55,748 nucleotides of DNA from an uncultured Rubritalea sp. (GTDB lineage: Bacteria > Verrucomicrobiota > Verrucomicrobiia > Verrucomicrobiales > Akkermansiaceae), in contig CAKZNV010000053.1 in NCBI GenBank assembly GCA_937132085.1, forward strand, positions 1 to 55,748. The letters are read 5' to 3'. Under the pieces are notes generated by a model, which saw nothing but the letters and a program-made list of their open reading frames with translations, ran no database searches and had not been told where the DNA came from. Of this stretch, positions 1 to 15,086 are shown piece by piece (positions within the stretch are counted from its first letter, which is position 1; every line of letters begins with the position of its first letter). A program made the translations under genes and the position numbers.

Positions 1-1002
1 CAGTGCAAGATGGGGCGTTATGCTGATGCTGTGGAGCGTAGGCTTTGCCTTGATTCCAAAACAAGACAGTGCAAGATTGGAGGCATTGGCACAATCCTCA
101 GCATGTAGCTTTGCCTTGATTCCAAAACAAGACAGTGCAAGATCTTTTACAACTAGACAATTCAAAAGCATTCGCTTTGCCTTGATTCCAAAACAAGACA
201 GTGCAAGATACCTACCAGAAGCCAAACATGCAAGAAGCAGCTTTGCCTTGATTCCAAAACAAGACAGTGCAAGATATTTGAGTAGCTTCGGATGTGGTTC
301 TATTGGCTTTGCCTTGATTCCAAAACAAGACAGTGCAAGATTGGATCTGATGATGCATCGAGATCAGCTGTAGCTTTGCCTTGATTCCAAAACAAGACAG
401 TGCAAGATGAGTGGTGGGGTGCTGATCAAGCTGGTATGGCTTTGCCTTGATTCCAAAACAAGACAGTGCAAGATAGGCTGTAAGGTGGTATTATGCCAAA
501 GACGGCTTTGCCTTGATTCCAAAACAAGACAGTGCAAGATAAAAATAAAAATCTAAAGCCTCTAACAATGGCTTTGCCTTGATTCCAAAACAAGACAGTG
601 CAAGATCTCCTTGCATGATGCCCCACGCCCGCCCTAGCTTTGCCTTGATTCCAAAACAAGACAGTGCAAGATGCAGTTCGTTGTGATCAAAACTATGAAA
701 GAGCTTTGCCTTGATTCCAAAACAAGACAGTGCAAGATAGCACACCTCCTTGAGCTAGCAGAGCTACAGCTTTGCCTTGATTCCAAAACAAGACAGTGCA
801 AGATTGTCTTGCGCTATACCTACCGCAAAGGCAGGCTTTGCCTTGATTCCAAAACAAGACAGTGCAAGATGCCATGGATCTCTACCATCAGCGATAACGA
901 GCTTTGCCTTGATTCCAAAACAAGACAGTGCAAGATTGATGAATAGGATAAAGTTTGAAGGTGTTTGCTTTGCCTTGATTCCAAAACAAGACAGTGCAAG
1001 AT
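1..1002 (+). CRISPR. CRISPR array, 15 full identical repeats plus one partial, no cas genes
   Basis: The window opens with the last 11 bases of a repeat (1-11). Fifteen complete 36-nt repeats follow, starting at 42, 108, 174, 240, 306, 373, 439, 505, 571, 637, 703, 769, 835, 901 and 967. Each begins GCTTTGCCTTG and ends CAGTGCAAGAT, and I see no mismatch among them. Spacers are 30 nt except one of 31 nt (342-372). The 36/30 geometry and the partial terminal complementarity (TTGC near the start, GCAA near the end) are typical of type II, especially II-C, arrays. The cas genes are not in the window, so the type is an inference. The sixteenth spacer position (1003-1032) lies inside phage tail-spike sequence. 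No leader is visible because the array runs off the left edge. The array most likely belongs to a host chromosome joined to the phage during assembly. Confidence 0.95.
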
Positions 1003-2417
1003 TTCAGAGTTGCTCCTGTGAAGTTGAATTTAAGAGCGTTTAATTCTGAGGATCTAACAACATTGTTAGGTGAGCCTATGATTTCCACAGAACCGCTAGG
1101 TGCGTATATGTCTTCGATTATATGGCCGCCAGCAGAACCGCTGTCTATCTGAACAACCTCCCTGCTAGTCTCACAAGTTACATTCTTGATTTTCCAAGGA
1201 GTATCTACCTCAGAACCTAGCTTAATACCAGTTCCTCCAGATTTCTTCATAGTGATGCCGTCTACAACTCCTCTACAGTTGTCTTCAACTCGGATGTCAT
1301 TACCAAAGATTGATTCAGTAAACACCGTATCTCCCCCAACATAGACATCATACCCATTGGTATTTTGAACATAGATGCCGTGGTTAGTGGGATCAATCTC
1401 ACAACCTTTAACGGATAATCGACCGCCATCCTCAACTTTAATACCGTCTCGCCCTCGGATATAGCATTGCGAAAACTCGGCAGACTGAAACGCATCACTC
1501 AGTAGAACCCCTTGAGCTAAATTATCGGTTGCTCCAATAATGCAACAGTTCGCAAACTTTGCATTTCCTTTGTTGGTAAACGGTTTTCCACGGAGACCTA
1601 CAGCAGGCTTTGCTGTTGATCCAATAAATATACTGTTTGAAACGTGAACCCTCCTGCTACCAAACACCGAGAGAGGTCTCGGACCTCCTACAGATATACA
1701 GTTGTTGACTGTCACATAGTCAGATACTAGTAAGTCCAAATTACCAGCACTCAACGCACCATCTCCAGACGCGTTCACACGCACTCCGCCATTATTATAA
1801 AGCTGGCAATCGCTGATTGTCAGGTAAACAACCCCCGAGCCAGCAGCATGGATTCCACATCCACCATTGTCATCAAGTAATAGATTCGTTAGAGCTATCT
1901 TAGTTCCTCCGTCCAAGTCCACCCCGTCCATCCCGCAGTTCGTGGCTCTTACATTTGTAATGGAGATATCTTCACCATTTTTGAAATTAATCCCCTCATT
2001 TTCATCGGCGGTAGGGATGGGATTGAATCTTCCTTTGTTCCCGTCCACTGTAAAGTCAGTAAGGGAAACATTAGAAATGACACCTCCTACATCACCTGAC
2101 ATTACAGGTGTATCGGATGCTACGCTGTCTAGCAGTTTGAAAATAGTTCCTTCTCTCGACCAACCTTTCAAACTCACGTTCGACAATAATGAAATAGCCT
2201 GTTTAGGTGAAGAGGGGTCTTTAGAGAGCATATATGTTCCATCTGGAAAAAATACTGTTCCACCACCAATGCTATTAACAAACCCAATAGCACTATTAAT
2301 AGCAGGTCGATCATCCGCAACACCGTCACCCTTAGCTCCGAAGTCTTTGACATTGTATGCTAACACCTCTTTGATGCGTTCAGCGTTCCTACCTGATCTG
2401 TTAAATAAGTCATTCAT
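888..2417 (-). CDS. Pectate-lyase-fold tail spike, N-terminal 471 residues plus array-encoded end
   Basis: This is a receptor-binding or depolymerase tail spike. Near the N-terminus (about residues 20-65) it carries the VKDFGAKGDGVADDRPAI signature of phage pectate_lyase_3 proteins. A long series of right-handed beta-helix turns follows (ITNVRATN, LTISDCQ, VSNSIFIG, FANCCIIG and similar). Residues 1-471 are phage sequence. After base 1003 the frame runs into the CRISPR array, and the last 37 residues (SCTVLFWNQGKA twice) are translated repeat and spacer, so they are almost surely artefactual. The genuine C-terminus is probably encoded at 55748-55451, giving a 570-residue protein when the genome is circularised. 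No SD precedes the ATG at 2417. It lies downstream of the capsid gene cluster in the late operon. Confidence 0.85.
   Translation of the reverse strand: MNDLFNRSGRNAERIKEVLAYNVKDFGAKGDGVADDRPAINSAIGFVNSIGGGTVFFPDGTYMLSKDPSSPKQAISLLSNVSLKGWSREGTIFKLLDSVASDTPVMSGDVGGVISNVSLTDFTVDGNKGRFNPIPTADENEGINFKNGEDISITNVRATNCGMDGVDLDGGTKIALTNLLLDDNGGCGIHAAGSGVVYLTISDCQLYNNGGVRVNASGDGALSAGNLDLLVSDYVTVNNCISVGGPRPLSVFGSRRVHVSNSIFIGSTAKPAVGLRGKPFTNKGNAKFANCCIIGATDNLAQGVLLSDAFQSAEFSQCYIRGRDGIKVEDGGRLSVKGCEIDPTNHGIYVQNTNGYDVYVGGDTVFTESIFGNDIRVEDNCRGVVDGITMKKSGGTGIKLGSEVDTPWKIKNVTCETSREVVQIDSGSAGGHIIEDIYAPSGSVEIIGSPNNVVRSSELNALKFNFTGATLKSCTVLFWNQGKANTFKLYPIHQSCTVLFWNQGKARYR
1003..1032 (+). other. Protospacer/spacer shared by array and phage; probable chimeric junction
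   Basis: These 30 bases directly follow the last repeat, so they sit where spacer 16 should be and have exactly the spacer length. They are also in-frame tail-spike coding sequence on the minus strand. In the reconstructed phage they would be preceded by base 55748 and followed by AGAGCGTT (1033-1040). That would be the PAM side if crRNAs are transcribed in the plus orientation, as type II repeats of this shape suggest. No terminal repeat follows, as expected if assembly left the array here and continued into the phage. Confidence 0.7.
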
Positions 2418-2418
2418 A

Positions 2419-2868
2419 TTATGTGATTGGTGTGTAGTTTATTCTTAGTTTGGCTGACCCTATAAGGGTTAAAGAGATAGGAGGATGAGCCTGTCCGTCA
2501 GAACGCTTGGATTGATAAGCTACCTCGTATATAGAAATGGAGTTATCACCGTTGACATAAGAACCCGTTCCTTCAATAACCTCAGCCTTCCATTCTATAG
2601 AGGAAGGGATTATAACGTCGTTTGTGACGTTTTTAAATACTGCTGGCTGCGGCACAGGAAGTGACGGTGATGATCCCCAAGACCCTCCTGGAACAGGTCG
2701 AGTTGATGATGCGGCTCCTGCTGCTTGAGCGGCGTAAATGAGAAGAGCTTGCTTCTCTGTAGGTGTAATTGTAGAACAGTTTAGAGTGTCAAGCTCTGCG
2801 GCTGACAATGTCCCTGCTTCTATTGCAGAAGCTAGTGCTTCAAAGTATGTATCTTGAGGTAAAGGCAT
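2419..2868 (-). CDS. Hypothetical virion-associated protein
   Basis: This 149-residue protein of unknown function sits between the capsid gene and the tail spike. The start is placed at ATG 2868, after an A/T-rich leader and the capsid terminator hairpin; an upstream in-frame ATG at 2910 would put the hairpin inside the coding region. The N-terminal 40 residues look helical (EALASAIEAGTLSAAELDTLN, resembling a short motif used by other phages for head or tail attachment). A Pro/Ser/Gly linker follows, then a beta-rich C-terminal half (SIEWKAEVIEG, ISLTLIGSAKLRINY). The stop nearly abuts the tail-spike ATG. Position suggests a head-tail, baseplate-collar or decoration role, but that is only inference. 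Confidence 0.7.
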   Translation of the reverse strand: MPLPQDTYFEALASAIEAGTLSAAELDTLNCSTITPTEKQALLIYAAQAAGAASSTRPVPGGSWGSSPSLPVPQPAVFKNVTNDVIIPSSIEWKAEVIEGTGSYVNGDNSISIYEVAYQSKRSDGQAHPPISLTLIGSAKLRINYTPIT

Positions 2869-2896
2869 AATAAAATTTTTGTTAGATTTAGTATAA

Positions 2897-2925
2897 AGGC
2901 AGGGAGGCACTAAGCTTCCCTGCCT
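2897..2925 (-). terminator. Hairpin after the capsid gene
   Basis: A perfect 9-bp stem (AGGCAGGGA with TCCCTGCCT) encloses an 11-nt loop. It is followed on the minus strand by TTATACTAAA. It lies between the capsid stop (2939) and the next start (2868). The U-tract is short, so it may only attenuate, lowering expression of downstream genes relative to capsid. Confidence 0.65.
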
Positions 2926-2938
2926 ATTAAATTACATG

Positions 2939-4750
2939 CTAGGAAGCGTCTACGATGATGAGATCTACGTAGGTGTCTTCAAGAGTAACTCCGACAGGGT
3001 TGCTAAGTGTAACCTTAACTCCATCGTCTACACCATCCAACGTGTCACCCGTAAGGATAGCAACATAGATAGTCTTGTGAGTTTCCCCAGCGGCAAATGC
3101 GATTGTTCCGTTAGCTGCTGTGTAGTGAGTGTCAGCCACTGCATCACCAAGTTCGGTGAGTGCGTAGTCAACTGATCCTGCAACACTGGTTACTCCTGTG
3201 CGTGTGATGTCGAGAGTAACAGCGTGGGCTGTGCCATCACTGAGTGTAGTTACTTTGCCACCAGAAGGAGACATTGATACTGCACTATCTCCAGGCTTGT
3301 CAACACACTGATGATTGTCATTAGCGTCTTGTCCACAAGCTCCGCAAGCTTCGATCTCTGCTGCGTTAGGAGCACACTTCTCGTGCTCTTGCGCAAAGAC
3401 TTCAGCTTCACCAACTGCACGTTCAGCCCCACGGGTAGGTAGGATGAGGTAAGGATCGTCCTTAGAGTGGCAGTATGCAATAGCTCCTGCTCTCTCGGCG
3501 TGCTCACACTTAAGTCTATAAGCGTGGTTAGAGATGAGCTGGAACTTAGAGTTCTTCTTATTGTTCGGCAACCAAGCACCGTCCAGAACAGAGATTGAGA
3601 AGTTAGTAGGAAGCTGTGCGTCTCCCACTGGTTTCATTGTCTCTTTGATTCTGAATCGAGAGAACGCTGTAGGGTGGATATGGAATGCAAGCGTGCACAT
3701 GTCGTAAGTCTGACCATCGCACTTGATGCGTGCTTGATTGTAGTCATGGTTAGGACGTTGTCCAACTCCGCCAAGCTCTTCGACAATGTTCTTCTTAGGG
3801 AAGACACGGACGAAAGCATACTGAGTCGCTCCTGTCACAGGGTGGACTCCGTCAGGCTTGAAGTAGCCACGAACAGGTCGTGCGATGAACACAGCTTTGA
3901 TGTCTTCGTAGACATGGAACGAACGTCCGTAGAGAGCCTCTTTAGGATCTTTAAGAACTTCCACATTGAAGCTTGCGTTACCAGCTCCGAGTGCTCCAGC
4001 TTTTCTACCTTGGTGCTCAACGATAGCGTCATACCAGTCGTTACGAGTGACCTCGATACTTAGGTTTCCGTCAGCGTCAAGAGCATCTTCAAACATCATG
4101 TGATCTCTGTAGTCGATGAGATACGAGATGCTGAGTCGTCCTTCAGGTGGTGCGTGCCAGCCGCCCTTAGTCAGGGTGAATGCTCCGCTAGTGATAGACC
4201 CGTTAGCTTCACCAAACTCGATTACTCGGTTTTGGAGTTCAGCTTCGTAGTTCTCCATACCATACTTACGGTATGAACTATACATTCCTGCGAAGAATCC
4301 GTCAACGTGTGCGTCACCGATACGTAGGTAATCGTTTACGCAGTAGATTGGCGTGCTCATTGGACGCTCGAAATCTTTGCTTTGGAATCTACGGAATCCT
4401 TGTGCGTAGGTGAACTCACAGAATCCATCACCGCAAGCGAGAGGATCTTTCTCATTCACATTTGTAGTGAATGATCGGTTCTTGCCATTACAGCCCTCCG
4501 CTTCCATTGAACCTTCCACCAATGCTCTTGGTGAATTGTCTCTATCTGCATACCCCGTGAATGCGGGGGTAGCTGTGGTATATTCAAACGAGTCCGTCTG
4601 AGTATTGTCCTTGATGTCGCCCTTGTCGGGGATCTGTGCCATGACGAAGGAGTTTGAATCCTCAAGGTCATGCTTTACAATGTCGGTGACGTTATCCGCC
4701 TCTTCGTGAAGAGCAGAGATAAACTCACCAGGTGTCATATTTGATGCCAT
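2939..4750 (-). CDS. Major capsid protein with C-terminal Calx-beta-like domain
   Basis: This 603-residue protein lies directly after the scaffold gene, the standard place for the major capsid protein. The first ~450 residues fit a phage capsid of HK97-like fold by context; I recognise no single diagnostic motif. Residues 459-482 hold a four-cysteine cluster (C459, C469, C472, C482) that could bind metal or form disulfides. Residues ~488-603 read as a Calx-beta-like domain: VDYALTELGDAV, HYTAANGTIAFAAGETHKTI, then VTLSNPVGV. That beta-sandwich is common in surface adhesins and is probably displayed on the capsid exterior. No SD precedes the ATG. An upstream structured leader and a possible TTGACT element (4948-4953) may allow separate high-level expression. 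An alternative is that the protein is a capsid/decoration fusion. Confidence 0.85.
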   Translation of the reverse strand: MASNMTPGEFISALHEEADNVTDIVKHDLEDSNSFVMAQIPDKGDIKDNTQTDSFEYTTATPAFTGYADRDNSPRALVEGSMEAEGCNGKNRSFTTNVNEKDPLACGDGFCEFTYAQGFRRFQSKDFERPMSTPIYCVNDYLRIGDAHVDGFFAGMYSSYRKYGMENYEAELQNRVIEFGEANGSITSGAFTLTKGGWHAPPEGRLSISYLIDYRDHMMFEDALDADGNLSIEVTRNDWYDAIVEHQGRKAGALGAGNASFNVEVLKDPKEALYGRSFHVYEDIKAVFIARPVRGYFKPDGVHPVTGATQYAFVRVFPKKNIVEELGGVGQRPNHDYNQARIKCDGQTYDMCTLAFHIHPTAFSRFRIKETMKPVGDAQLPTNFSISVLDGAWLPNNKKNSKFQLISNHAYRLKCEHAERAGAIAYCHSKDDPYLILPTRGAERAVGEAEVFAQEHEKCAPNAAEIEACGACGQDANDNHQCVDKPGDSAVSMSPSGGKVTTLSDGTAHAVTLDITRTGVTSVAGSVDYALTELGDAVADTHYTAANGTIAFAAGETHKTIYVAILTGDTLDGVDDGVKVTLSNPVGVTLEDTYVDLIIVDAS

Positions 4751-4866
4751 AGTGTTATAAATTAGTTAAAGGTTATCGTGTCTGCCTTGAAAACGGAGCG
4801 ACCCGACAATCACTCTAATTAACTTACTAAGGGCTTCGGCAGGATTCGATCTCTGCTTACGAACAA

Positions 4867-4943
4867 AAGAAGCTTCAGTTGTAAAGAGCTGGGGAAAATA
4901 GGCTAATCCCCTGACGCTATATCTTTACTAACTGAAGCTTCTT
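4867..4943 (-). promoter_or_regulatory. Long hairpin in the scaffold-capsid intergenic region, with upstream TTGACT box
   Basis: Bases 4867-4887 and 4922-4943 form a ~21-bp inverted repeat with a single bulged base. Its loop contains a second GGGG/CCCC hairpin. On the minus strand the stem is followed by TTTTGTTC, so it could terminate scaffold transcripts. A TTGACT box (4948-4953, minus) sits just before it, but the -10 is poor (TAGTAA at 17 bp). The remaining leader up to the capsid ATG (4750) has no gene and no SD. A terminator, processing site or attenuator are all possible. Confidence 0.6.
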
Positions 4944-4962
4944 GATAAGTCAATAGTTAAGT

Positions 4963-6477
4963 TTAACTTTTTTTACGTTCTCTCATCTTCTGAGAAGCTG
5001 GGACGTAACCCTTCGGTCTACCTTCAGGTCTAATGTTTCTAACATGCTCATAAGGTTCCTTATCTTTATCTGACTTACTAGAGCTATCAGAAGACTTAGC
5101 TTTACTTGTAGCAGCCGCAGCACCCTTCTTCTTCTTCTTGGCTTTAAGATAACGATCATACACTTTCCGCATGTCCTTATACTCATCCATAGCCATCTCG
5201 TTATGAAAGGCATCGTTGATGAACTGCGCTCTACCACGCTCGTAGTTCTCCTCACGTCTCTTCATATACTGGTCGAGGGTTATACCGTCCGAGGTAGCTA
5301 TCTTCTCAACACGATCCATCTCTGCCTGTGTTAGGGGGCGGAGACCGTGAACGAACTCCATAGCTCTGCGCTTGAACTTCTCTCCATGCTTCTTGAACTT
5401 GTCGTCACTCTTGTAGCGTCTGCCCACAATAGACTCGATTGCATCAGGGTTGGTCTCGATGAACTCATCATCTACATCACCCAGCTGGTCGATGTCAGGT
5501 TTGTATTTCGAGATCACAGCATCGTAGTCAGAACTTCCGACAGACAGTTTGTTGTTAGCGTGCTGATCTTTAAGCTTCTCAGTAGCGTCCTCGATACCCA
5601 TGTAGATAGTGAGAGCCTTGTTGAGGTTGTTCACTGCGCTTGTAGGATTATCCATACCGTAGCGATCTTCTAGTATTTTCTTGAACTCTTTCTTAGCAGT
5701 GATCTCCTGTGATAGGTTCGTAGCATCCTTGGTTGCCGTGTAGTATTCGTTGAGAAGTGGTCCTTGTGAGTCTCTGATGAACTTGTCACGCAGATCATCG
5801 TCATCGATATTCATGGCTGCCTGACCCACTTCACTGTCGAAGGTCTTCCACATAGGAATTACGGTGTCGTGCTTGTTCCAGTCGATGTTCTGAGAAGCTA
5901 GTGTTTTGGATCTTTCGGTCTCTGCATCGAGCTGTTCACGCAGAGCATCACGCTCCGCCTCTAGCTCAATAGCTCTGGTCTCGGCAATCTTACGTGCCTT
6001 ACCCTGCTCTTGCACTCGTGATCGCCATCCAGCGATTGCATCCTTACCTTCAGGCTCATTCTCTTCCTGTTCTCCAGACTTGTCATCTTCGCCAGCAACA
6101 TCGGACTTGTCGTCTCCTTTATCCTCCTCGTCATCGTCAAGGAAATCATCGAAGATAGAATCGTCATCCTCATCTGGCTTATCGTCTTTCTTATCTTTAG
6201 ATTTATCATCAGGCTTATCTTCCTTCTTATCCGCATCCTTATCTCTAAGGTCTTTGATCTCATCATGTTTGGTATCATGAGTAGTTTCGGACTCCTTCTT
6301 ATCCTTATCCTCCTCTTCCTCTTCCGATGGGAAGCGGGACTTCTTCATGCGAGCTTCACGCTGGGCGAGAGCACTATCCTCCAGCTCCTTGATTTTAGCT
6401 TTACGCTCTTCTGGGAGGGGATCATTATCTCCTCTACCTTTCGGTTCTTTCGGGAACCAACCTTGGCTTAGTCTCAT
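4963..6477 (-). CDS. Scaffolding protein
   Basis: This 504-residue, highly charged protein lies between the portal and capsid genes, the usual scaffold position. Residues ~35-150 are dominated by Asp, Glu and Lys runs (DKDKKE, DDEEDKGDD). Residues ~150-210 form a heptad-rich coiled coil (ELEAERDALREQLDAETERS). The C-terminus is basic (KKKKKG, ending MRERKKS), as expected for the part of a scaffold that contacts capsid subunits. It would guide prohead assembly and then leave or be degraded. No protease gene is adjacent, although an HExxH protein is encoded at 13305-13721. The start ATG at 6477 follows an A/C-rich leader. Confidence 0.8.
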   Translation of the reverse strand: MRLSQGWFPKEPKGRGDNDPLPEERKAKIKELEDSALAQREARMKKSRFPSEEEEEDKDKKESETTHDTKHDEIKDLRDKDADKKEDKPDDKSKDKKDDKPDEDDDSIFDDFLDDDEEDKGDDKSDVAGEDDKSGEQEENEPEGKDAIAGWRSRVQEQGKARKIAETRAIELEAERDALREQLDAETERSKTLASQNIDWNKHDTVIPMWKTFDSEVGQAAMNIDDDDLRDKFIRDSQGPLLNEYYTATKDATNLSQEITAKKEFKKILEDRYGMDNPTSAVNNLNKALTIYMGIEDATEKLKDQHANNKLSVGSSDYDAVISKYKPDIDQLGDVDDEFIETNPDAIESIVGRRYKSDDKFKKHGEKFKRRAMEFVHGLRPLTQAEMDRVEKIATSDGITLDQYMKRREENYERGRAQFINDAFHNEMAMDEYKDMRKVYDRYLKAKKKKKGAAAATSKAKSSDSSSKSDKDKEPYEHVRNIRPEGRPKGYVPASQKMRERKKS

Positions 6478-6481
6478 GTTG

Positions 6482-6724
6482 TTATGTGGTTTGATTTTTC
6501 TTTCGTTCAGCTATGCGCTTCCTACCTTCTAAAGCGAAGGTCTCGATCACGTTGTATGCAATCGTGAATCCCTTCAGCTCGTCTGGTGTGCACTCGCTAC
6601 CTTCACGGCAGGACAGTGCACGCTGTTGTGCAAGTAGGACTGGCTCTAGCTCGTCCCATACCTCAGCTATAATCTCAGCTTTAGGGCTGGATAGGAGCTG
6701 CTTCATGTGTTCGGATGTTTCCAT
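6482..6724 (-). CDS. Small helical protein between portal and scaffold
   Basis: This 80-residue soluble protein is predicted mostly alpha-helical (AEIIAEVWDELEPVLLAQQRAL, then ETFALEGRKRIAERKK). Its ATG follows the portal stop with no gap, so translation is probably coupled. The two cysteines near the middle (SCREGSEC) are the only notable residues. Small helical proteins of this kind next to portals are common in podoviruses, but their function is usually unknown. Confidence 0.75.
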   Translation of the reverse strand: METSEHMKQLLSSPKAEIIAEVWDELEPVLLAQQRALSCREGSECTPDELKGFTIAYNVIETFALEGRKRIAERKKNQTT

Positions 6725-9016
6725 TTATTCTTGTGGTTGTTGGTTAGTATCTCTGTCTAATTTTTCCTTCTTGAGAACGAAGTCTTGATCGTGCTTACGA
6801 CCTACCTGATCTTGGCGAACCTTACGTTGTTCTGCTATAGACTTCGTATCGAAGTCCTTACGATCCTGCTCACGGTCTTTGCGCTCAGACTCGGCGATCT
6901 TCAGATCCTGCTCTATCTGAGCAGCGTTAGCACCGCCCTCCTCGGCTTCACGAGCCTCAAGGTCTTGAAGTAAGCCATCACCCTGTGCAGCTAACTTAGC
7001 CATGTCCTGAGCGTATGACTGACCCTCTGCAACAGTAGTCTTGTTCCGAAGCAGTTCATCAAGGTGTAGTCCTCCGTGATTCTGTAAACCAGCGAATGTC
7101 ACAGCATCTTCTCGTGTCCAAGGCTTAAGCTCGCCACGTCTGATAAGGACGGCTTGTTGCTTAAGGTGTATCGGCATGTGATCTTGATGAACGTCCTCTA
7201 CTCCAAGAGGAGTATCTATCCCAAGAACTGAGTCACGAGCAATCTGCTCAAATTCAGACTCAGCAGTTACACGTTGTGCAGATGAGATCTTAGGAAGAAT
7301 CTCAGTCAGCTTGTCAGCGAACTCTGGATCATGTGTGATGAGCGTTGTGAATCTACGGATGATGAACGGTCTGACAGCTGCTGGGTAGTTGTTGATGTTC
7401 TGCATAAGTAGTTCCGCAGCTGCTAGGTCAAGATCACTCTCTCCGCTGAGAGAAGACCTGACGCACTTAACTTTGATATTCTCAAAGAATCCGAACTTCT
7501 GTTTAGCAAGCTCCTTACGTTTGATACCCTTAGCTTTAAGCTTATACCTGAACCATTTAATCTCCTCATACCCAGGTGATCCAGGATCTACCTTACCTAT
7601 CAGGAATCTACGGACTATCTCACGGAAGAGAATGTCGAGGCTCTTGTATGCGTCAGCGATGCGAGATCCCTGTGTAGCTTGATCGTCACCCGCTTGTCTA
7701 ACAGCTTGTGTTCGTAGCTGCTGGTCTCTACCAGTGTTAGAGAATCCGCTGCCAGATATGGCTGCTGAGTTCTGCTGTAGAAGAGCCATAGGATTTGAGA
7801 GACCTCCGCCTCCGTTAGGGAAGCTGAACGGTGCTAGGTTGTCAGGAACAATAGGATCTCTTGCGGGGTCCCAACCCATCAGACCTTCGGTAGATCCTTT
7901 GCCGTTGTCTTGAAATCTAGGGACGGCACGTAACTTCTCTCCGTCATACCAACGATTCATTAGTTCCTCTGCATCAATATCAGAGTTATACTTGATCTCA
8001 CACACACCTTTTGAACCAGAGAATTTCTTCTCTCCTCCAATGGAGGCATCGATTACGAATAAGTGCATCCACTCAGAAGGTCTCTTGTAGAATGCTGGCA
8101 GATGGGCAATCACCTTAGCCTTTCCCCCGTCATCGTTAGTTATAAAGTTATCCGTAAAGATAGTAATATCTACAACCTTACTCTTAAGAGCCTTGTCAAA
8201 TCTGACTTCATAGTAATACCAGACACTTGCTTTGGTCTTGTTACCATCTTTGAATCCGTCTGTGTTAGTAGCTTCACGATCCTCGGACTCATGATCACCA
8301 GCAGTGCCCACACTATCCTTCTCGATGTTCGATTCAATTTGCTTGATGATCTTTTTAATCAGAGGTTTGTCCAGATTGACCTCGTCACCCTCCTTGAGAG
8401 TATCGTCAATCTCTCGTTGCTCATCGGTAAGATCGTCATCTTCTTCCTCATCCGACATAAGCTCCTTGAGCTGCATGATTGTCAACTCTCTTGGAGCAAA
8501 TGCGTATGTCATCTCCGAAGCATCAGATCCAGTTGAGTCTGGGAATAACATCTTAACATGAAGCTTGGGACACCAGTCACTATCCTCTGGGTAGACACAC
8601 GCTGCTCTGCCAGAGATAACGATCTCTCCAGAGACGGATCTCCAGAAGGAGCCGAACTTACTAGTGTTATAGATAGCCTCATTGATATACTCATTCACAA
8701 AGGCAGACTCTGTCTCAGTCTGATCCAGGTCGCCACGTAGAACGTCTACATCTACTATCTTGTTAGAGGTAGACCAGAGTGCGTATAGCTTGATCTCTAG
8801 GATGTGAGCAGCAGCGTAACCAAGTAGGTGATTTGTTAGAGTCTCTAGGTTCTCCTCATCCCCCTCTTCCTCAGTCATGATAGGCTTACCGTTGTAGAAG
8901 TCTCGTATGATACATTCACGTAGCTCACGCTCGCTATGTTTCTTACGGACACTGTCTTTCTCACAGCACAGTTCTGTCGTGCCGCTGAAGAAGTTAGATT
9001 TTAGTTTTAGTGACAT
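6725..9016 (-). CDS. Portal protein
   Basis: This 763-residue protein lies downstream of the large terminase and upstream of the scaffold and capsid genes, with size and layout matching podovirus portals. It would form the dodecameric DNA gate at one capsid vertex. Consistent features are an acidic segment at ~195-240 (SDEEEDDDLTDEQ), a glutamine-rich tract at ~410-450 (ALLQQNSAAISG, GRDQQLRTQAVRQ), and a long charged C-terminal helix (~690-763, LKIAESERKDREQDRKDF) that may be a barrel or crown. No enzymatic motif is expected or seen. The start ATG at 9016 follows an A/T-rich leader only 4 bp from the preceding stop. Confidence 0.85.
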   Translation of the reverse strand: MSLKLKSNFFSGTTELCCEKDSVRKKHSERELRECIIRDFYNGKPIMTEEEGDEENLETLTNHLLGYAAAHILEIKLYALWSTSNKIVDVDVLRGDLDQTETESAFVNEYINEAIYNTSKFGSFWRSVSGEIVISGRAACVYPEDSDWCPKLHVKMLFPDSTGSDASEMTYAFAPRELTIMQLKELMSDEEEDDDLTDEQREIDDTLKEGDEVNLDKPLIKKIIKQIESNIEKDSVGTAGDHESEDREATNTDGFKDGNKTKASVWYYYEVRFDKALKSKVVDITIFTDNFITNDDGGKAKVIAHLPAFYKRPSEWMHLFVIDASIGGEKKFSGSKGVCEIKYNSDIDAEELMNRWYDGEKLRAVPRFQDNGKGSTEGLMGWDPARDPIVPDNLAPFSFPNGGGGLSNPMALLQQNSAAISGSGFSNTGRDQQLRTQAVRQAGDDQATQGSRIADAYKSLDILFREIVRRFLIGKVDPGSPGYEEIKWFRYKLKAKGIKRKELAKQKFGFFENIKVKCVRSSLSGESDLDLAAAELLMQNINNYPAAVRPFIIRRFTTLITHDPEFADKLTEILPKISSAQRVTAESEFEQIARDSVLGIDTPLGVEDVHQDHMPIHLKQQAVLIRRGELKPWTREDAVTFAGLQNHGGLHLDELLRNKTTVAEGQSYAQDMAKLAAQGDGLLQDLEAREAEEGGANAAQIEQDLKIAESERKDREQDRKDFDTKSIAEQRKVRQDQVGRKHDQDFVLKKEKLDRDTNQQPQE

Positions 9017-9020
9017 AGTA

Positions 9021-9695
9021 TTAGTTCCATCGATTTAATTGTTGTGCCTGTTTATATGTGATAACAGACTTGCCTAGTTTGGCGTTGACTTTGTTATGCG
9101 TATTGAACAACCACTGTCTAGCATCAGCTAGTTTGTGGATAGGATTGGTCCTCAACATGCTCACATACTTTGAAAATTCTCGGAAGCATTCGATGCAACC
9201 TATGCGTGAGGCGTGGACTGGATTCAAAAGTTTTAGAGTGGTCTCAACTCGTGATACAAATTCGTTAAACGAGTAGCTGGAATCGTCTACGTTGAGGTAG
9301 TTAGCCATAGCGTTCCATTCAATACTGCCCCACTCTGACGGATGGTGGTATTCATGCGGAGTAGCATCATGCTCGTGACCGACTACCGCTGCCTCTATGA
9401 TGTTCTTAGGAACTACCATGTTGTTGTCACTGACTCTACTCATCCATTGATAGTTGAGCGTGAACCATAGGTTATCGTCTGATATATCTACACCGTTATC
9501 TGTAAGCAACTTCTTAGACTTATTGAATACCTCATTAGGAGTTGCACCCGACACAGTAGATTTATTCTTCTTGACTATGAACGACACTCGCCAGCCTCCA
9601 CGAGGAGTGGTCATGCTGGTGACTAGACACCTACCGACCTTAACGGTTCTGCCACGTCTATCAATAAGACTCTTCTTATCTGTAAGTATGATCAT
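9021..9695 (-). CDS. Hypothetical protein between terminase and portal
   Basis: This 224-residue protein belongs to no family I can name. The N-terminal third is beta-rich (RGRTVKVGRCLVTSMTT, GGWRVSFIVKKN). The middle has a His-rich stretch (GHEHDATPHEYHHPSEW), and the C-terminus is helical with two nearby cysteines (IGCIECFREF). The ATG (9695) overlaps the terminase stop (9692) by 4 bases, so the two are likely translationally coupled. Position suggests a packaging accessory or connector role. The His/Cys residues might bind metal, but no known motif is complete. Confidence 0.7.
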   Translation of the reverse strand: MIILTDKKSLIDRRGRTVKVGRCLVTSMTTPRGGWRVSFIVKKNKSTVSGATPNEVFNKSKKLLTDNGVDISDDNLWFTLNYQWMSRVSDNNMVVPKNIIEAAVVGHEHDATPHEYHHPSEWGSIEWNAMANYLNVDDSSYSFNEFVSRVETTLKLLNPVHASRIGCIECFREFSKYVSMLRTNPIHKLADARQWLFNTHNKVNAKLGKSVITYKQAQQLNRWN

Positions 9696-11719
9696 ATTCT
9701 CTTAGCTCTCTTAATTCTAAACTTTCCTGTAACTCTGCTCTTTGAATTACTATCACCCTTTACTTCAGACTTCAAGGACTTTGTTACCATACCCTTAAGA
9801 CTAGCCATACCTACCAGACCTACCAACACGTCTCGGTCATCGGGTGAGTATTTCCACTGGTGCTTGTAGCTCTTCTTGTCCTCACATTTCTTCTTCTTCG
9901 CCTTACCTATCTCCTCTACACGAGTTCGTGCCAGCTGGATAATCCCTTCCTCACAAAACTCTCCCCCTCTGAACTGGCGACTGTTGAAGAGGTCAGCCGT
10001 CAAGTAGCAGAGTTCCGAGATCCTGTCCTCGCAGTGCTCATCCGTGGTCTTGTTGAGGCTCTCTAATCGATAGCCGTCTGGCTTTCTATTATAACCGAAA
10101 GGTTTGCATGATGTTCCGATGTAGCGTGCCATAGAAGGTCCTATGTCCTCACGCATCGAGAAGTCATACCCAAAGTTGTCTGGTGAGATTCCGTGCTCCT
10201 GATTCTTCTCAGCACACTGGATAGCCAGCTGGTCCTCAATCGATACCTCAGAGTCTACCACGACCTGGCTTGTGTCGATTCCGACCATCCTCATGCGATC
10301 AAACCAGAACTGATTATACTTAGCATCCTTGACAAGTGTCAGCTTTTCAAAGTGATGAGTGACTTGAAAAATCATCTCAACAGTTTCGGCTCCGAGTCCG
10401 TCCACAACTATCGCATGTCCGAAGCTGGCAAATCCCCACTTAGCTTCATCCTTTCCTCCGAATGCTGGGTCACAGAATGATACTCGTGTGTGATCCCCTG
10501 TTACAGTAAACCACGGATCTGTGTAACGAGATCCAGAGATCTTGGATTGAGACAGCACCTTGTTGTTCTCGGCATCGCCCCTGACAGGGAATGATCTGGC
10601 TTGGGAGTAGAACGTGTTACTCTCCGTTCCCTTCTCTGCCAGTCTGTCCCAGTCTTCCTGATGGAACAGGTATGAGTATATCTTACGCTTAGCTTGTATG
10701 TTAGCAGCTCGCTTACCATCGAATCGCAGAGTCATCGAACGCTCAGCTGACGACCATAGGTGATCGAGTTCAACGTCTAGGTCTTTGTATCTGGCAACAT
10801 CCCCTTCGTATCTACCAACAGGCTCGCAGATCATACCACCCATATCATCCTCAGACTTGAAGTTCTGGGATGTAATCACCATGAAGTTCTGAGACTGTAG
10901 GTTTGGTAACACTGCGAGGTAGGCGAAGTTTCTTACCTCATTGATCTCGTCAAAAATATGGAGGATCAATCCTCGTGTGTCATCGTTACTCTTCTTGGTC
11001 TTGTTACCTTTAAGCTTAGAAGCTTCCTTAGCATCTACTACCTTTATAAAGCCAGCTTTAGCTAACTTAGGAATAGCTGTGATGTATCGGTCTTGGTAGA
11101 CAAATCCTTTAGGGAAGAGTGCCGTCTTCTTCTCTCCGTCTTCATGCGGGTGAGTGAGACAGATATTGTCCCACATCTCCAAGATGTCTCCCCAGACCGT
11201 AGACTCGGAAGTATTGGTATAGGGGTTTAGAACGTAGATGGATGTGAACTCTGGATCGATATAGAAGCAGCAGAAAGCTATTCTCACCGACCCAGCTGAC
11301 TTTCCCGCATTCTGGGAGCCAATCAGGTTCAAGGCTTTTATACCGTGGCTGAAGCTCATACAGAACATCTGAGTAGCATCTGCTATGGTAGGCGTGATGT
11401 CAGTGTTCTCATCAAGCAACGCCATCAGAGTTAGAAAGTGCTGGTAATACTTCTTGCCGTGAACAGACTCGTATGCCCATTGCTCACGACCAGCTTCAAA
11501 GAGGATCTCCTTCTCGATCTCATGAGGCTGCATAGCCTCCTGTAGTATCTCTCCGTCTTTGTTTCGGACTTCACCATAGATAGGATCGTCCCAGTAGCTG
11601 ACGCTGCCCATCAGCTTCTTGCCAATGGACTTTGCGTCTAGCTTTTTGTCAGTCCAATCAAACCATGTGTCATGTAGTTTGAAGTTCTTGAACGGTGATT
11701 CTGGTAGAGTATCTTCCAT
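9692..11719 (-). CDS. terL: Terminase large subunit (packaging ATPase-nuclease)
   Basis: This 675-residue motor pumps DNA into proheads and cuts concatemers. The ATPase has a Walker A-like P-loop GSQNAGKS (residues 134-141) and a Walker B LILHIFDEI with D257/E258. The coupling-type motif VITSQN follows at ~282. The nuclease half begins near residue 410 with RVSFCDPAFGG, where D417 is a predicted metal ligand of the RNase H-like fold. The P-loop is atypical but is acceptable in terminases. It lies upstream of the portal as usual. No certain small subunit is next to it; the 133-residue gene upstream is too divergent to call, and an HTH protein at 17154-17663 is an alternative. Confidence 0.93.
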   Translation of the reverse strand: MEDTLPESPFKNFKLHDTWFDWTDKKLDAKSIGKKLMGSVSYWDDPIYGEVRNKDGEILQEAMQPHEIEKEILFEAGREQWAYESVHGKKYYQHFLTLMALLDENTDITPTIADATQMFCMSFSHGIKALNLIGSQNAGKSAGSVRIAFCCFYIDPEFTSIYVLNPYTNTSESTVWGDILEMWDNICLTHPHEDGEKKTALFPKGFVYQDRYITAIPKLAKAGFIKVVDAKEASKLKGNKTKKSNDDTRGLILHIFDEINEVRNFAYLAVLPNLQSQNFMVITSQNFKSEDDMGGMICEPVGRYEGDVARYKDLDVELDHLWSSAERSMTLRFDGKRAANIQAKRKIYSYLFHQEDWDRLAEKGTESNTFYSQARSFPVRGDAENNKVLSQSKISGSRYTDPWFTVTGDHTRVSFCDPAFGGKDEAKWGFASFGHAIVVDGLGAETVEMIFQVTHHFEKLTLVKDAKYNQFWFDRMRMVGIDTSQVVVDSEVSIEDQLAIQCAEKNQEHGISPDNFGYDFSMREDIGPSMARYIGTSCKPFGYNRKPDGYRLESLNKTTDEHCEDRISELCYLTADLFNSRQFRGGEFCEEGIIQLARTRVEEIGKAKKKKCEDKKSYKHQWKYSPDDRDVLVGLVGMASLKGMVTKSLKSEVKGDSNSKSRVTGKFRIKRAKRI

Positions 11720-12121
11720 CTAAGGTATGATAATCTTGCTCTCCTCTTCTTCAGGAGGTTCGTCTTCAAATTGAGTAGGATTTGTTAGAACGTATGTTCC
11801 AGTCACATCCTTCTCGTAAAATGGTAGTATGCTGAAGCTAGGGTTGATAGCTATAGCTCCAGTTCTAGGGTTATGGATAGCATTCGGTTCTCCGAACAGA
11901 GTGTCGCTTATAGCCATGCCTATGAAGGTCATGATAGCCTGTCTCTCGTTCTTGTGAAATCCTCTGAACTCACGAGGACTCAGAGGTATGCTTATGTTGG
12001 CTACGAATACGATAGGAACCCAGTATCTTACTGCGTTCTGTGTCCATCGTATCTGAGGCTTCTGCTGAGCAGCTACCTCCGCCTTGGTCGGCTTCTTATC
12101 TTTCTTATGTTTCTGTCCCAT
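11720..12121 (-). CDS. Hypothetical protein directly upstream of terL
   Basis: This 133-residue protein has a basic, Lys-rich N-terminus (KHKKDKKPTKAEV), a hydrophobic middle (RYWVPIVFVANISIPL) and an acidic tail (EDEPPEEEESK). Its stop abuts the terminase ATG, so the two are expressed together. Small terminase subunits often sit here, but I see no helix-turn-helix, so that assignment is not supported. A packaging accessory role is plausible. Confidence 0.7.
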   Translation of the reverse strand: MGQKHKKDKKPTKAEVAAQQKPQIRWTQNAVRYWVPIVFVANISIPLSPREFRGFHKNERQAIMTFIGMAISDTLFGEPNAIHNPRTGAIAINPSFSILPFYEKDVTGTYVLTNPTQFEDEPPEEEESKIIIP

Positions 12122-12131
12122 GATAATGAAA

Positions 12132-12155
12132 GAGGACGGTTTTTACGCCGCCCTC
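12132..12155 (-). terminator. Hairpin between the acidic-protein gene and the pre-terminase gene
   Basis: An 8-bp stem (GAGGGCGG with CCGTCCTC, one G-U pair) with an A-rich loop is followed by TTTC on the minus strand. It lies between the stop at 12176 and the next ATG at 12121. It is a likely rho-independent terminator or attenuator that separates the preceding small late genes from the packaging module. Confidence 0.6.
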
Positions 12156-12175
12156 CATTAAGTGTTTGAGTTGTG

Positions 12176-12784
12176 CTAGTTAGCTGCGAGTGCCAGTGCT
12201 AGGAGCTTGGCGTTAGTCATACCGTAATCGCTCTGTGCCATCTGGTCAAGCTTTCTAAGCGGGACGAGATCGACTTCGATTACTTCACCCTTGACCATGA
12301 GACTGACAACCTGTGTAGTAGGCTTCTCTGTGAAGGTGATGATCTTATCGGATTTGCTGGTCTGCTCAATCTCTACTGATGTGCCGTTGGCAAGCTTCAG
12401 GTAGAATCGGAAGCCAGCAGGTTTATCTTTAGCTTTAGCTTTATCTTTAGCTCTAGGCTTAGGCTTGGCAGGAACTGGATCAGGTTCAGGCTCTTCCTCC
12501 TCTTCCTCCTCAACTTCTTCTTCAGCTTCTTCCTCTTCGGACTCAGCTTCTGGCTCTTCTTCTTCGCCGTCCTCCTCCTCGTTATAAGGATTGTCTCCGC
12601 CGATCTTAAGATTCACTAACCATTCATCATGCTCCTCAAGGGAGTCGAGATAGGCTACGAAAGTTGAGTCCTGGGTTTTAGTAGTAGCTCCGATTGCAGC
12701 AGCTAGTGATTCTTTATCGAGAGAGCCACCTTCTTGAAGGTGCTCAATAAGTTTTTGTTGCTTTGCTTTGTTAATACGTGACAT
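12176..12784 (-). CDS. Acidic low-complexity protein
   Basis: This 202-residue protein starts at ATG 12784; an in-frame upstream ATG at 12829 is less likely because the A/C-rich leader typical of this phage precedes 12784. Residues ~65-105 are almost all Glu/Asp with a Pro-Lys stretch after it (PAKPKPRAKDKAKAKDK). The ends look folded: an N-terminal helical segment (SRINKAKQQKLIEHLQEGG) and a C-terminal beta-rich part (FRFYLKLANGTSVEIEQ). The next upstream gene makes a very basic protein, so the pair may interact electrostatically. Function is unknown. Confidence 0.75.
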   Translation of the reverse strand: MSRINKAKQQKLIEHLQEGGSLDKESLAAAIGATTKTQDSTFVAYLDSLEEHDEWLVNLKIGGDNPYNEEEDGEEEEPEAESEEEEAEEEVEEEEEEEPEPDPVPAKPKPRAKDKAKAKDKPAGFRFYLKLANGTSVEIEQTSKSDKIITFTEKPTTQVVSLMVKGEVIEVDLVPLRKLDQMAQSDYGMTNAKLLALALAAN

Positions 12785-12799
12785 AGTTGTTGTGTGGTT

Positions 12800-12829
12800 G
12801 ATAAGGTGTGGGGTGTTTAGCTCCCCCAC
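12800..12829 (-). terminator. GC-rich hairpin before the acidic-protein gene
   Basis: On the minus strand AGGTGGGG pairs with CCCCACACCT across a short loop, leaving two unpaired bases. It lies between the stop of the basic protein (12880) and the start of the acidic one (12784). A weaker CCTGA/TCAGG hairpin precedes it. There is no clear U-tract, so it may be an mRNA-stabilising or attenuating structure. Confidence 0.4.
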
Positions 12830-12879
12830 CTGACCTCTAGGATCAGGCGCAGCTTCTTAGACACTGACACCCTAAATTT

Positions 12880-13242
12880 TTAGATACCTAGTTTGAGTTG
12901 TGCTTCGCTCTCGATCTGATCCTTCTGCAACTTCAAGACGAAGTTACGAGATACTGTGACTAGCGCAGAGTCGTCATTGCCAAGAAGCTCCTTGATCTTG
13001 CCGAGTTCGATCTCAGCGAAGAGTGGGATTCCTGATTGGCGGTTACGCTTCTTAGGCTCCCCTGCCTTAGCTTTAGGTTTAGGCTTAGCTACAGGAGCTG
13101 GCTTAACTTTAGCAGCTGGCTTGGTAGCTTTAGTGACTGCCTTCTTAGCTACCTTCTTATTAGGTGCTTTTTTGACTGTCTTCTTAGCAGCTGGCTTTTT
13201 CTTAGCGGCTGCACGTTTACGTGGTGGTTGTGGTTTAGGCAT
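12880..13242 (-). CDS. Lys/Ala/Pro-rich H1-like DNA-binding protein
   Basis: This 120-residue protein is extremely basic over residues 1-68 (repeats of KKAPNKKVAKKA, KPAAKVKPAPVAKPKPKAK), resembling histone H1 C-terminal tails and bacterial AlgP/HU-tail sequences. The C-terminal 50 residues appear folded (IPLFAEIELGKIKELLG). It could coat nucleic acid in the virion or condense intracellular DNA. The upstream region 13243-13304 carries a TTGACG box with an A/T-rich stretch (TATAGA) at -10 distance, so it may have its own promoter. The neighbouring acidic protein could be a partner. Confidence 0.75.
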   Translation of the reverse strand: MPKPQPPRKRAAAKKKPAAKKTVKKAPNKKVAKKAVTKATKPAAKVKPAPVAKPKPKAKAGEPKKRNRQSGIPLFAEIELGKIKELLGNDDSALVTVSRNFVLKLQKDQIESEAQLKLGI

Positions 13243-13304
13243 AATAGTTCTGTGGTTAGTTCGGGTATAGTTATCTATATAACTAAGTTCGTCAATAAGA
13301 AATT

Positions 13305-13721
13305 CTATAAAAGTTTCAGATCTTCTTTGTCTGACTTATTGTTTAAAGTGTAAGTCCATTCTAGGTATCTCCTGATAGCCCACGCTACGTAGTAGGCGTG
13401 AAACTCCTGCGTCTTCAAATGGTCTGTGAATCCAATACTCTCTGCTGATCCAAATGCAGCATGGACTAGCTCATGCGCTGTAGTAGCAGTGCATTGATCA
13501 AAGTCATCGGACGGGTGTGATCCTACCCATAGTAACTGCTTATGACCACAATCCCAACATCGTCCTTTCGCCCCGTCTTCGTTGCCGTCACCGAATGTTT
13601 CTGGCTCTGAGTTTGGATCGAGTTCTTTTAGTATCTTGTCGAAGTCCTGTCTATCATACTCCCCTACGATAATAGTTACTTGGAGACCGTAGAGCTGCTC
13701 TGATGCGTGTAGGTATTCCAT
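13305..13721 (-). CDS. Predicted zinc metalloprotease-like protein (HELVH)
   Basis: This 138-residue protein has an HExxH zinc-protease motif (H83-E84-L85-V86-H87 in TTAHELVHAAFG). A possible third ligand lies in the following helix (QEFHAYYVAW, residues ~105-114). A CWDCGH pair (C55, C58) resembles half of a zinc ribbon. The start is placed at ATG 13721 because it overlaps the preceding stop in a TAATG, giving tight translational coupling; the frame stays open 20 codons further upstream. It is encoded with late genes, so prohead maturation protease or host-protein cleavage are possible roles. It has no export signal. The catalytic assignment rests on the motif alone. Confidence 0.72.
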   Translation of the reverse strand: MEYLHASEQLYGLQVTIIVGEYDRQDFDKILKELDPNSEPETFGDGNEDGAKGRCWDCGHKQLLWVGSHPSDDFDQCTATTAHELVHAAFGSAESIGFTDHLKTQEFHAYYVAWAIRRYLEWTYTLNNKSDKEDLKLL

Positions 13722-13978
13722 TACATTTTTACTTTGCTGAGGGACTCTACTACCGACTCGACAGTATCTTGACTGTCGCAATCACAATCAACGACAGAGT
13801 GCTCTTTAAGATACTCAGATGGACCGTGACTGTCCATAGATCTTTGCATGACTCGGCACGTCTCTTGTTTCATCTGGGTTGCGATCTCGTCTGTGAGAAG
13901 TGATCCTCCGTCTGCCATCAGTCTGGCTATCTGTCCTGCTAGAGCTACCCGATCTTCTAGTGTTGTTATCTTTGCCAT
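13721..13978 (-). CDS. Hypothetical first gene of the packaging-side late operon
   Basis: This 85-residue, mainly helical protein (EDRVALAGQIARLMADGGSL) has a Cys-Asp cluster CDCDSQD near the end. It is the first gene after a terminator (14039-14062) and a good minus-strand promoter (13989-14016), so it starts the main late transcript on this side. Its stop overlaps the start of the HExxH protein gene by one base. Function is unknown. Confidence 0.72.
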   Translation of the reverse strand: MAKITTLEDRVALAGQIARLMADGGSLLTDEIATQMKQETCRVMQRSMDSHGPSEYLKEHSVVDCDCDSQDTVESVVESLSKVKM

Positions 13979-13988
13979 AGTGATGAGA

Positions 13989-14016
13989 CTTATAGCTGAT
14001 CCTATAGATAAGTCAA
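13989..14016 (-). promoter_or_regulatory. Sigma70-like promoter for the late leftward operon
   Basis: On the minus strand TTGACT (14011-14016) lies 16 bp from TATAAG (13989-13994), each one base off consensus. It sits just after a strong terminator and just before the ATG at 13978. The predicted leader would be very short. It should allow host RNA polymerase to start the capsid-packaging operon. Confidence 0.65.
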
Positions 14017-14024
14017 CATTTAAT

Positions 14025-14062
14025 TTACAAAAGAAAAAGACTGCCTCCGTGAAGAGACAGCC
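14025..14062 (-). terminator. Rho-independent terminator downstream of the GT29-like gene
   Basis: A 9-bp stem (GGCTGTCTC with GAGGCAGTC, two G-U pairs) with loop TTCACG is followed on the minus strand by TTTTTCTTTT. It ends transcripts of the 14175-15834 gene group. A second perfect hairpin, GGGATC-ATGA-GATCCC, lies just upstream at 14081-14096. The region 14063-14174 has no gene. Confidence 0.8.
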
Positions 14063-14174
14063 TTCCGTTTCCAGGTAAGAGGGATCATGAGATCCCGATT
14101 AGACAAAAATGCCAAGAAGATAATGGCTAGTGGATTTACTTTCTAGCAGTCTGCTTGAGGTTCGTCAACAACTT

Positions 14175-14669: not shown

Positions 14670-14886
14670 ACCGTCTGAACTTGAATCCTTTCTTTATGAA
14701 GAAGGTTTTAAACAGGATGTCACCGTGATGAGTCTCAAAGCCCAGCCTCGCACACGTCCTCAGAAAACAGTTCCAGAATCCTTTAGCACGATCCTGCTTT
14801 TTTAATATCACGATGCGCTCCTTCTTTTCTTTTGATAGAAATGGATTAACTATATTACCCCTCTCGTTCTTGAATATGTTTTTCAT
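14656..14886 (-). CDS. Small basic protein coupled to the GT29-like gene
   Basis: This 76-residue protein is rich in Lys, Arg and Phe (KERIVILKKQDRAKGFW, FFIKKGFKFRRYAKP). I recognise no family. The start is placed at ATG 14886, the first one after the promoter at 14894-14921; the open frame upstream to 14955 would cross that promoter and a terminator. It overlaps the GT29-like gene by 14 bases, so both are probably co-translated. It may be an accessory to the glycosyltransferase, but that is inference from position. Confidence 0.55.
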   Translation of the reverse strand: MKNIFKNERGNIVNPFLSKEKKERIVILKKQDRAKGFWNCFLRTCARLGFETHHGDILFKTFFIKKGFKFRRYAKP

Positions 14887-14893
14887 AGACCAC

Positions 14894-14921: not shown

Positions 14922-14930
14922 TCAAAAACA

Positions 14931-14997: not shown

Positions 14998-15086
14998 CGG
15001 ATGCTTTATTTAGATCTCACACCATTTGATCCGACTCTGAGTAATTATTGGACTTACGTATTTCGCCCTATTTGCCAGCCGATTTT

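What the first reader, a model, noticed from the sequence alone, without database searches (positions are those of the whole stretch)
1..1032. Host CRISPR array joined to a phage through its own spacer
The array is followed, exactly one spacer length after the last repeat, by continuous phage coding sequence. The tail-spike frame left incomplete at 1003 is completed by the opposite window edge. The best explanation is that spacer 16 equals a protospacer in this phage and that assembly crossed from host to phage through those 30 bases. This would tie the phage to a host with a type II-like CRISPR and show active targeting of its tail spike.
Basis: partly seen in the sequence, partly recalled or inferred. 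Interest (0 to 1): 0.9.

Follow-up and report, generated by a model that had tools for sequence, protein, structure and literature searches.

The report
Host CRISPR array misjoined to phage
The left end of this contig is a bacterial immune-memory array that an assembler most probably glued to a phage genome through one 30-base memory taken from that phage; the join is an artefact, but it gives the phage a likely bacterial host.

Summary
Window 1-1002 is a CRISPR array: one partial and 15 identical 36-nt repeats. Phage sequence starts directly after the last repeat. The tail-spike frame cut at 1003 continues at the opposite edge. One open frame on another contig spans the join at 58% identity, with 15 nt more exactly there, so the circle probably closes with about 15 nt missing.

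Two new tests support the spacer reading. First, window 1-77 equals the start of contig 195 and the end of contig 136 of a Verrucomicrobiales MAG with this repeat and cas2-cas1-cas9. I read this as a k=77 assembly fork, so the array belongs to that lineage. Second, four other protospacers have 3' flanks fitting NNRRYG (a fifth, weak match does not). AGAGCG after 1032 fits, and only for a 30-nt spacer; chance is 1.9-2.7%.

Most likely spacer 16 equals a protospacer in the phage's tail spike and the assembler crossed over in it. Active targeting is not shown, no reads were available, and spacer 16 followed by a repeat was not found. The join is an artefact; the host link is ordinary.

The parts
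1..77 (.). 77-base overlap read as a graph fork: last 11 bases of a repeat, spacer 1 (12-41) and the first full repeat (42-77)
   Evidence: Identical to the first 77 bases of CAKZMG010000195.1 and the last 77 of CAKZMG010000136.1; contig 195 and the window diverge at base 78
42..1002 (+). CRISPR array: 15 identical 36-nt repeats and 14 spacers between them (15 with spacer 1)
   Evidence: in the + orientation the PAM-like motif is 3' of the protospacers
937..966 (+). spacer 15, 30/30 identical to a site on contig C319 of the host MAG (3' flank ATGGCGGTC)
1003..1032 (+). inferred spacer 16, and protospacer in the phage tail-spike gene: the shared stretch in which host and phage sequence meet
   Evidence: starts at the base after the last repeat; one copy in G000 (up to 3 mismatches); no match in G001; not in viral contigs (exact); 3' motif fits only for a length of 30 among lengths 26-33
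1033..1038 (+). AGAGCG, fits the inferred PAM NNRRYG
   Evidence: compare ATGGCG, GAGGCG, GAGATG, TGAGCG at four other protospacers; RRYG at 2.7% and RGCG at 0.42% of phage positions
1003..2417 (-). tail spike, N-terminal 471 codons and two bases of the next (pectate-lyase-like beta helix)
   Evidence: scan of frame 888-2417: PHROG tail-spike and pre-neck appendage families, Pfam PF12708 and PF13229
55451..55748 (-). tail spike, C-terminal part of the same gene (last base of the split codon, 98 codons and the stop)
   Evidence: joins in frame; one open homologous frame crosses the join; 65% DNA identity to G212:C102; weak, not significant likeness to phage tail-spike, tail-fibre and unnamed proteins (18 records; E of listed rows 0.1-0.9)
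1003..55748 (.). phage genome, apparently a circle opened inside the tail-spike gene (about 15 nt possibly missing)
   Evidence: DNA polymerase A, primase, helicase, Sak4-like annealing protein, Cas4-domain exonuclease; no integrase family among the 39 window proteins scanned against PHROGs (further small frames were not scanned)

Best explanation
Two DNA molecules were joined in assembly. Window 1-1002 is part of the type II CRISPR array of a Verrucomicrobiales host of the lineage ERR2094166_bin.15. Window 1003-55748 is a phage, apparently a circle opened inside its tail-spike gene. The array's 16th spacer is identical to the phage's tail-spike sequence at 1003-1032. A short-read graph assembler entered that 30-nt stretch from the array and left it into the phage; the phage's own sequence leading into the stretch was left as the contig's far end. 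Shown: the junction exactly at a repeat end, the split and rejoinable tail spike, the 77-base overlap with the host contigs, the matching cas locus, and the PAM-like motif at the right place. Inferred: that the 30 bases stand in the host array as a spacer, that iterated k-mer sizes let a 30-nt identity survive into a k=77 assembly, and that the phage infects this lineage.
For: Repeat, spacer and phage boundary. Exact repeat in genome contigs only in ERR2094166_bin.15 (the tool may leave out the window's own records), and, with up to 2 mismatches, in 2 of 260 genomes of the family, both of one genus (G000 and G212; G212 has bin.15's contig numbers and coordinates). Window 1-77 equals the contig 195 start and the contig 136 end. 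Contig 195 carries array, cas2, cas1 and part of cas9. Tail-spike homologue across the join, 322/558 identical. Four protospacers of this array type with 3' flanks ATGGCG, GAGGCG, GAGATG, TGAGCG; spacer-16 site AGAGCG. The motif fits only in the 30-nt register, the length of 55 of 61 other spacers. Chance 1.9-2.7% for RRYG, 0.22-0.42% for RGCG. Relatives of phage protein 48710-50686 in 3 of 260 family genomes, the window's own included, all of one genus.
Against: No reads were available. No contig was found in which spacer 16 is followed by a repeat (G000; G001). The PAM rests on four protospacers, two of them imperfect (26/30 and 27/30); a fifth, weak 25/30 match (spacer 871-900 on C312) has GAAATC, which misses the motif, and was set aside as probable chance. 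A 30-nt identity is shorter than k=77, so the crossing must have come from smaller k, scaffolding or chimeric reads, and I could not show which. Closure of the phage is probably 15 nt short. None of the 101 other spacers (61 of this repeat type, 40 of the C138 type) matches this phage with up to 5 mismatches. In the public phage collection no record covers 80% of the joined spike, and no listed row (20 of 228 records) reaches the join.
Confidence: 0.86

Rival explanations
1. Random chimera: array and phage were joined by chance directly after a repeat, and 1003-1032 is not a spacer.
For: Spacer 16 followed by a repeat was not found in G000 or G001, and the 30 bases are in no IMG/VR contig searched (exact match).
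Against: A random break would fall exactly at the repeat end about once in 66 positions (inference from the 66-base period), and the PAM-like motif would follow 1.9-2.7% of sites.
Confidence: 0.06
2. Real molecule: the circular phage recombined into the host array by single crossover between its protospacer and spacer 16, so the array is truly flanked by an integrated phage opened at its tail spike.
For: The structure array-repeat-30 nt-whole phage is what such an insertion would give. Phage recombination genes (Sak4-like annealing protein, Cas4-domain exonuclease) are present.
Against: 30 bp is short for homologous recombination (general knowledge). Such an event would separate the two parts of the phage's own tail spike. 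No integrase among the 39 proteins scanned. The contig stops at 55748 instead of running on into 1003-1032 and a repeat.
Confidence: 0.04
3. The phage carries its own CRISPR array next to the tail spike (a virus-borne mini-array that uses host Cas proteins).
For: Virus-borne mini-arrays are published (PMC6858448, start of abstract in the listing). The repeat is identical to the host's, as such an array would need.
Against: The array start overlaps by 77 bases with the host contigs that hold the cas genes. The array sits inside the tail spike, which is otherwise continuous across the contig edges. The repeat was found in no IMG/VR contig (exact match).
Confidence: 0.03

Closest known systems
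Type II CRISPR-Cas with Cas9, Cas1 (NMENI-like) and Cas2 only (subtype II-C-like)
   Same: Cas9 (TIGR01865), type II Cas1 (TIGR03639) and Cas2 (TIGR01573) all above curated cut-offs; 36-nt repeats, mostly 30-nt spacers; motif 3' of the protospacer.
   Different: The host locus lies on another contig (195); a relative with another repeat is on G000:C138. Subtype not proven: contig 195 ends inside cas9.
Virus-borne mini-CRISPR arrays (PMC6858448; start of abstract seen in the listing)
   Same: A CRISPR array on one contig with phage genes and no cas genes beside it.
   Different: Here the array is a branch of a host's own long array and sits inside a phage gene; the join is best explained by assembly.
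Chimeric contigs at CRISPR repeats in short-read assemblies (one passage of PMC6617893)
   Same: Short-read assembly error at a CRISPR array.
   Different: That passage blames the repeats; here the crossing point is a spacer identical to a co-occurring phage.

Membership tests
Type II-C CRISPR-Cas (for the host locus of this repeat) | Cas9 effector | tested here: met
   L014:2332-4656 TIGR01865 109.1 bits (cut-off 100), partial protein; relative on C138 216.8 bits
Type II-C CRISPR-Cas (for the host locus of this repeat) | Type II Cas1 and Cas2 next to Cas9 | tested here: met
   TIGR03639 159.7 bits (cut-off 120), TIGR01573 70.9 bits (cut-off 24.5)
Type II-C CRISPR-Cas (for the host locus of this repeat) | No csn2 or cas4 in the locus | tested here: inconclusive
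   No further gene-sized frame between cas9 and array in contig 195 (frames of 80 aa or more) or C138 (60 aa or more), but contig 195 ends inside cas9 and no csn2 or cas4 search was run
Type II-C CRISPR-Cas (for the host locus of this repeat) | tracrRNA with an anti-repeat | tested here: inconclusive
   The stretch next to the last repeat pairs with the repeat: contig 195 -32.6 kcal/mol against a minimum of -25.8 in 56 control stretches; C138 -27.0 against a minimum of -28.1 in 80, so not unique there. Strand and transcript not shown
Spacer-protospacer pair (spacer 16 and phage) | Identity over the spacer | not testable with these tools
   The 30 bases occur once in the contig; a host copy with a following repeat was not found
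Spacer-protospacer pair (spacer 16 and phage) | PAM on the correct side | tested here: met
   AGAGCG fits NNRRYG, derived from four other protospacers (a fifth, weak one does not fit); only in the 30-nt register
Virus-borne mini-array | Array lies in the viral genome without breaking a gene of it (my working criterion) | tested here: not met
   Array sits inside the tail-spike gene, whose two parts are at opposite contig edges
Integrated prophage in a CRISPR array | Integrase | tested here: inconclusive
   No integrase family among 39 window proteins scanned; other frames not scanned
Integrated prophage in a CRISPR array | Host sequence on both sides | tested here: inconclusive
   The last 300 bases are phage tail spike; the contig ends there, so what follows is unseen

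The most novel reading that the evidence does not exclude
The joined molecule is real: a circular phage inserted into its host's CRISPR array by recombination between its protospacer and the matching spacer, making the immune memory itself the attachment site.
Probability: 0.04. Interest if true: 0.9.

Novelty: new member of a known kind. Interest (0 to 1): 0.35.

Why it matters
The join itself is an artefact, but an informative one. It links a phage of which 20 of 26 minus-strand proteins scanned match no PHROG family to a likely host genus of Verrucomicrobiales, suggests a PAM (NNRRYG) for a Cas9 whose PAM I know of no report on (recalled, not searched), and suggests that a single 30-nt spacer can pull a phage contig and a CRISPR array together. 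In practice the array in this genome bin should not be read as the bin's own, nor as a phage-borne CRISPR. Contigs of this kind could be mistaken for virus-encoded arrays in automated surveys.

Tried and rejected
Phage-borne array: set aside because the array start overlaps host contigs by 77 bases and the repeat was found in no IMG/VR contig. Prophage at the array: no integrase seen among 39 proteins and no host sequence before the right edge.

Searches that led nowhere: relatives of the DNA polymerase, 48710-50686 and 9692-11719 in viral contigs (one weak locus; none); spacer 16 in viral contigs (none); spacers of this type, spacer 16 included, in ten other genomes of the genus (0 of 10); Rfam (none at gathering score); tRNAs (none); papers naming ERR2094166 (none); papers with all of protospacer, CRISPR array, misassembly and de Bruijn graph (none). 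The DNA polymerase has relatives in 811 phage records, all under 60% identity, too general to name a host. The joined spike matches 228 phage records, none over 80% of its length, and none of the 20 listed crosses the join. The contigs with phage relatives in G210 and G215 are short (3.8 and 7.3 kb) and do not reach the junction genes. Duplex energies did not settle the strand of the tracrRNA, since both orientations score alike.

Considered and left open: the 77-base overlap could come from a spacer that occurs twice in one array instead of from two strains.

Rows set aside: the 25/30 match of spacer 871-900 on C312, without the motif. For the second repeat type 7 of 9 protospacer places fit NNRGG; the two others (AGATGG, AATCCC) do not. 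The rescan covered the window and ten fetched stretches, not whole genomes; the whole-genome part is (BLAST, E up to 0.1).

Full report
What is there. The window is one whole contig (C53) of a 4.46-Mb genome in 254 contigs, G000, which I take to be a MAG. It begins with the last 11 bases of a 36-nt repeat, followed by 15 complete identical repeats at 42-1002 and 15 spacers, 14 of 30 nt and one of 31 nt. The next base, 1003, is phage sequence: the minus-strand frame from 2417 is a tail spike with a pectate-lyase-like beta helix (PHROG tail-spike families, Pfam PF12708 and PF13229). No repeat stands at 1033, where one would be due.

The tail spike is one gene cut by the contig ends. Reading 2417 to 1003 and on into 55748 to 55451 gives 570 aa without a stop. 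On contig C102 of another genome (G001) a single open frame aligns to residues 21-570 with 322 of 558 positions identical, straight across the join. At the join the homologue has 15 extra nt, with similar DNA on both sides; the protein alignment has only two other, shorter gaps. The window end shows no overlap longer than 5 bases with the sequence from 1003 on. In the public phage collection the spike matches 228 records, none over 80% of its length, and none of the 20 listed reaches the join; its C-terminal 99 residues alone give only weak matches (18 records, E of the listed rows 0.1-0.9).

Whose array is it? The exact repeat was found in no IMG/VR contig. In the genome collection it was found only in the Verrucomicrobiales MAG ERR2094166_bin.15, on contigs 136 and 195 (the tool may leave out records of the window's own genome). 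In the family of G000, 2 of 260 genomes have it with up to 2 mismatches: G000 itself (15 copies, those of the window) and G212 (49 copies), a genome of the same genus whose contig numbers and coordinates match bin.15. Contig 195 holds 16 repeats, one with a single change, followed by cas2, cas1 and a partial cas9, identified as type II. The first 77 bases of the window equal the first 77 of contig 195 and the last 77 of contig 136, and the window and contig 195 diverge at base 78. Contig ends that overlap by one k-mer length are what a de Bruijn graph assembler leaves at a fork (general knowledge). I infer that window and bin.15 come from the same assembly with k=77, and that the window array is an alternative branch of this host array: a strain variant, or one array in which that spacer occurs twice. 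G000's one detected cas locus (one Cas1 match; one Cas9 match) is on contig C138 and has a related but different repeat; its Cas9 is 58% identical to the part of Cas9 on contig 195 (422/728). The window's array is therefore probably not G000's own.

Is 1003-1032 a spacer? A host copy with a following repeat was not found (in G000; in bin.15). The test I could make was the PAM. I searched 61 distinct spacers of this repeat type (spacer 16 left out) and 40 of the C138 type in G000 and bin.15, then rescanned the window and ten fetched stretches with up to 5 mismatches. Four places outside arrays match the first set: window spacer 937-966 on C319 (30/30, 3' flank ATGGCG), two spacers of contig 136 on C319 (27/30, GAGGCG; 30/30, GAGATG) and one on C102 (26/30, TGAGCG). 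A fifth, 25/30 on C312, has GAAATC, misses the motif, and I take it as chance. The four share NNRRYG on the 3' side, the side on which type II systems have their PAM (general knowledge). The phage bases after 1032 are AGAGCG, which fits. Of the lengths 26-33, only 30 gives the motif, and 55 of the 61 other spacers are 30 nt long. RRYG stands at 2.7% of phage positions on both strands and at 1.9% within the spike on this strand (26 of 1375); the narrower RGCG at 0.42% and 0.22%. Together with a junction exactly at a repeat end, this makes spacer 16 = protospacer much more likely than a random chimera. The motif was drawn from few sites, so the percentages are a guide and not a formal test.

How it probably arose. 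At k smaller than 30 the shared stretch is one graph node entered from the array and from the phage and left towards a repeat and towards the phage. If the weaker arms are dropped, the array is carried into the phage; contigs of small k are fed into later rounds in iterative assemblers (general knowledge), so the join can survive to k=77. This step is inferred; scaffolding or chimeric reads are alternatives that only reads can separate.

What the phage is. It encodes DNA polymerase A, primase and helicase, a Sak4-like annealing protein and a Cas4-domain exonuclease. None of 39 window proteins scanned against PHROGs matched an integrase; further frames were not scanned. Of the 26 minus-strand proteins among them 20 match no PHROG family. 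A relative of protein 48710-50686 is present in 3 of 260 family genomes (G000 itself, G210, G215), all of one genus, in line with a host in that genus. The tail-spike homologue lies in bin.15. Spacers of this type matched nothing in the ten other genomes of the genus.

What is not shown. Active targeting, expression, and the crossing at read level. Of 101 other spacers none matches this phage with up to 5 mismatches.

Literature. One passage of PMC6617893 says that repeats in CRISPR arrays can cause chimeric contigs in short-read assembly. Virus-borne mini-arrays are published (PMC6858448, start of abstract in the listing). A search for papers holding protospacer, CRISPR array, misassembly and de Bruijn graph together found none, and a looser search found 28 papers, of which I saw 15 in the listing; this is not proof that such joins are unreported.

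Verdict. The feature is most likely an assembly chimera with a real and ordinary biological cause: a host that carries a spacer against a co-occurring phage.

Noticed in passing
L025 (G001:C319) 18002-19805: A contig with what look like host housekeeping genes (glycine cleavage system, a gyrase-B-like protein) ends in about 1.8 kb with an amidase-like gene (all named by reading, no family search) that holds three protospacers of this CRISPR lineage (two exact), so this host seems to carry an element that its own array lineage targets.
   Followed up: partly
L009 (G000:C138) 132-7641: Type II locus of G000 with 42 repeats of a second repeat type; 7 of 9 protospacer places fit a 3' motif NNRGG; one 30-nt spacer occurs twice in the array.
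   Followed up: partly
window 38374-44751: A 2125-codon reading frame without any PHROG match.
   Followed up: no
window 51683-51852 and 18777-18989: Tandem repeats: a 27-bp unit (6.3 copies) within the 51370-52110 frame, and 15/30/45/75-bp periods within the 18689-19213 frame that read like pentapeptide repeats (by eye).
   Followed up: no
L088 (G001:C12) 1659-1688 and 2458-2487: Two exact protospacers of the two cas-proximal spacers of C138, which would fit new spacers entering at the cas side of these arrays.
   Followed up: partly
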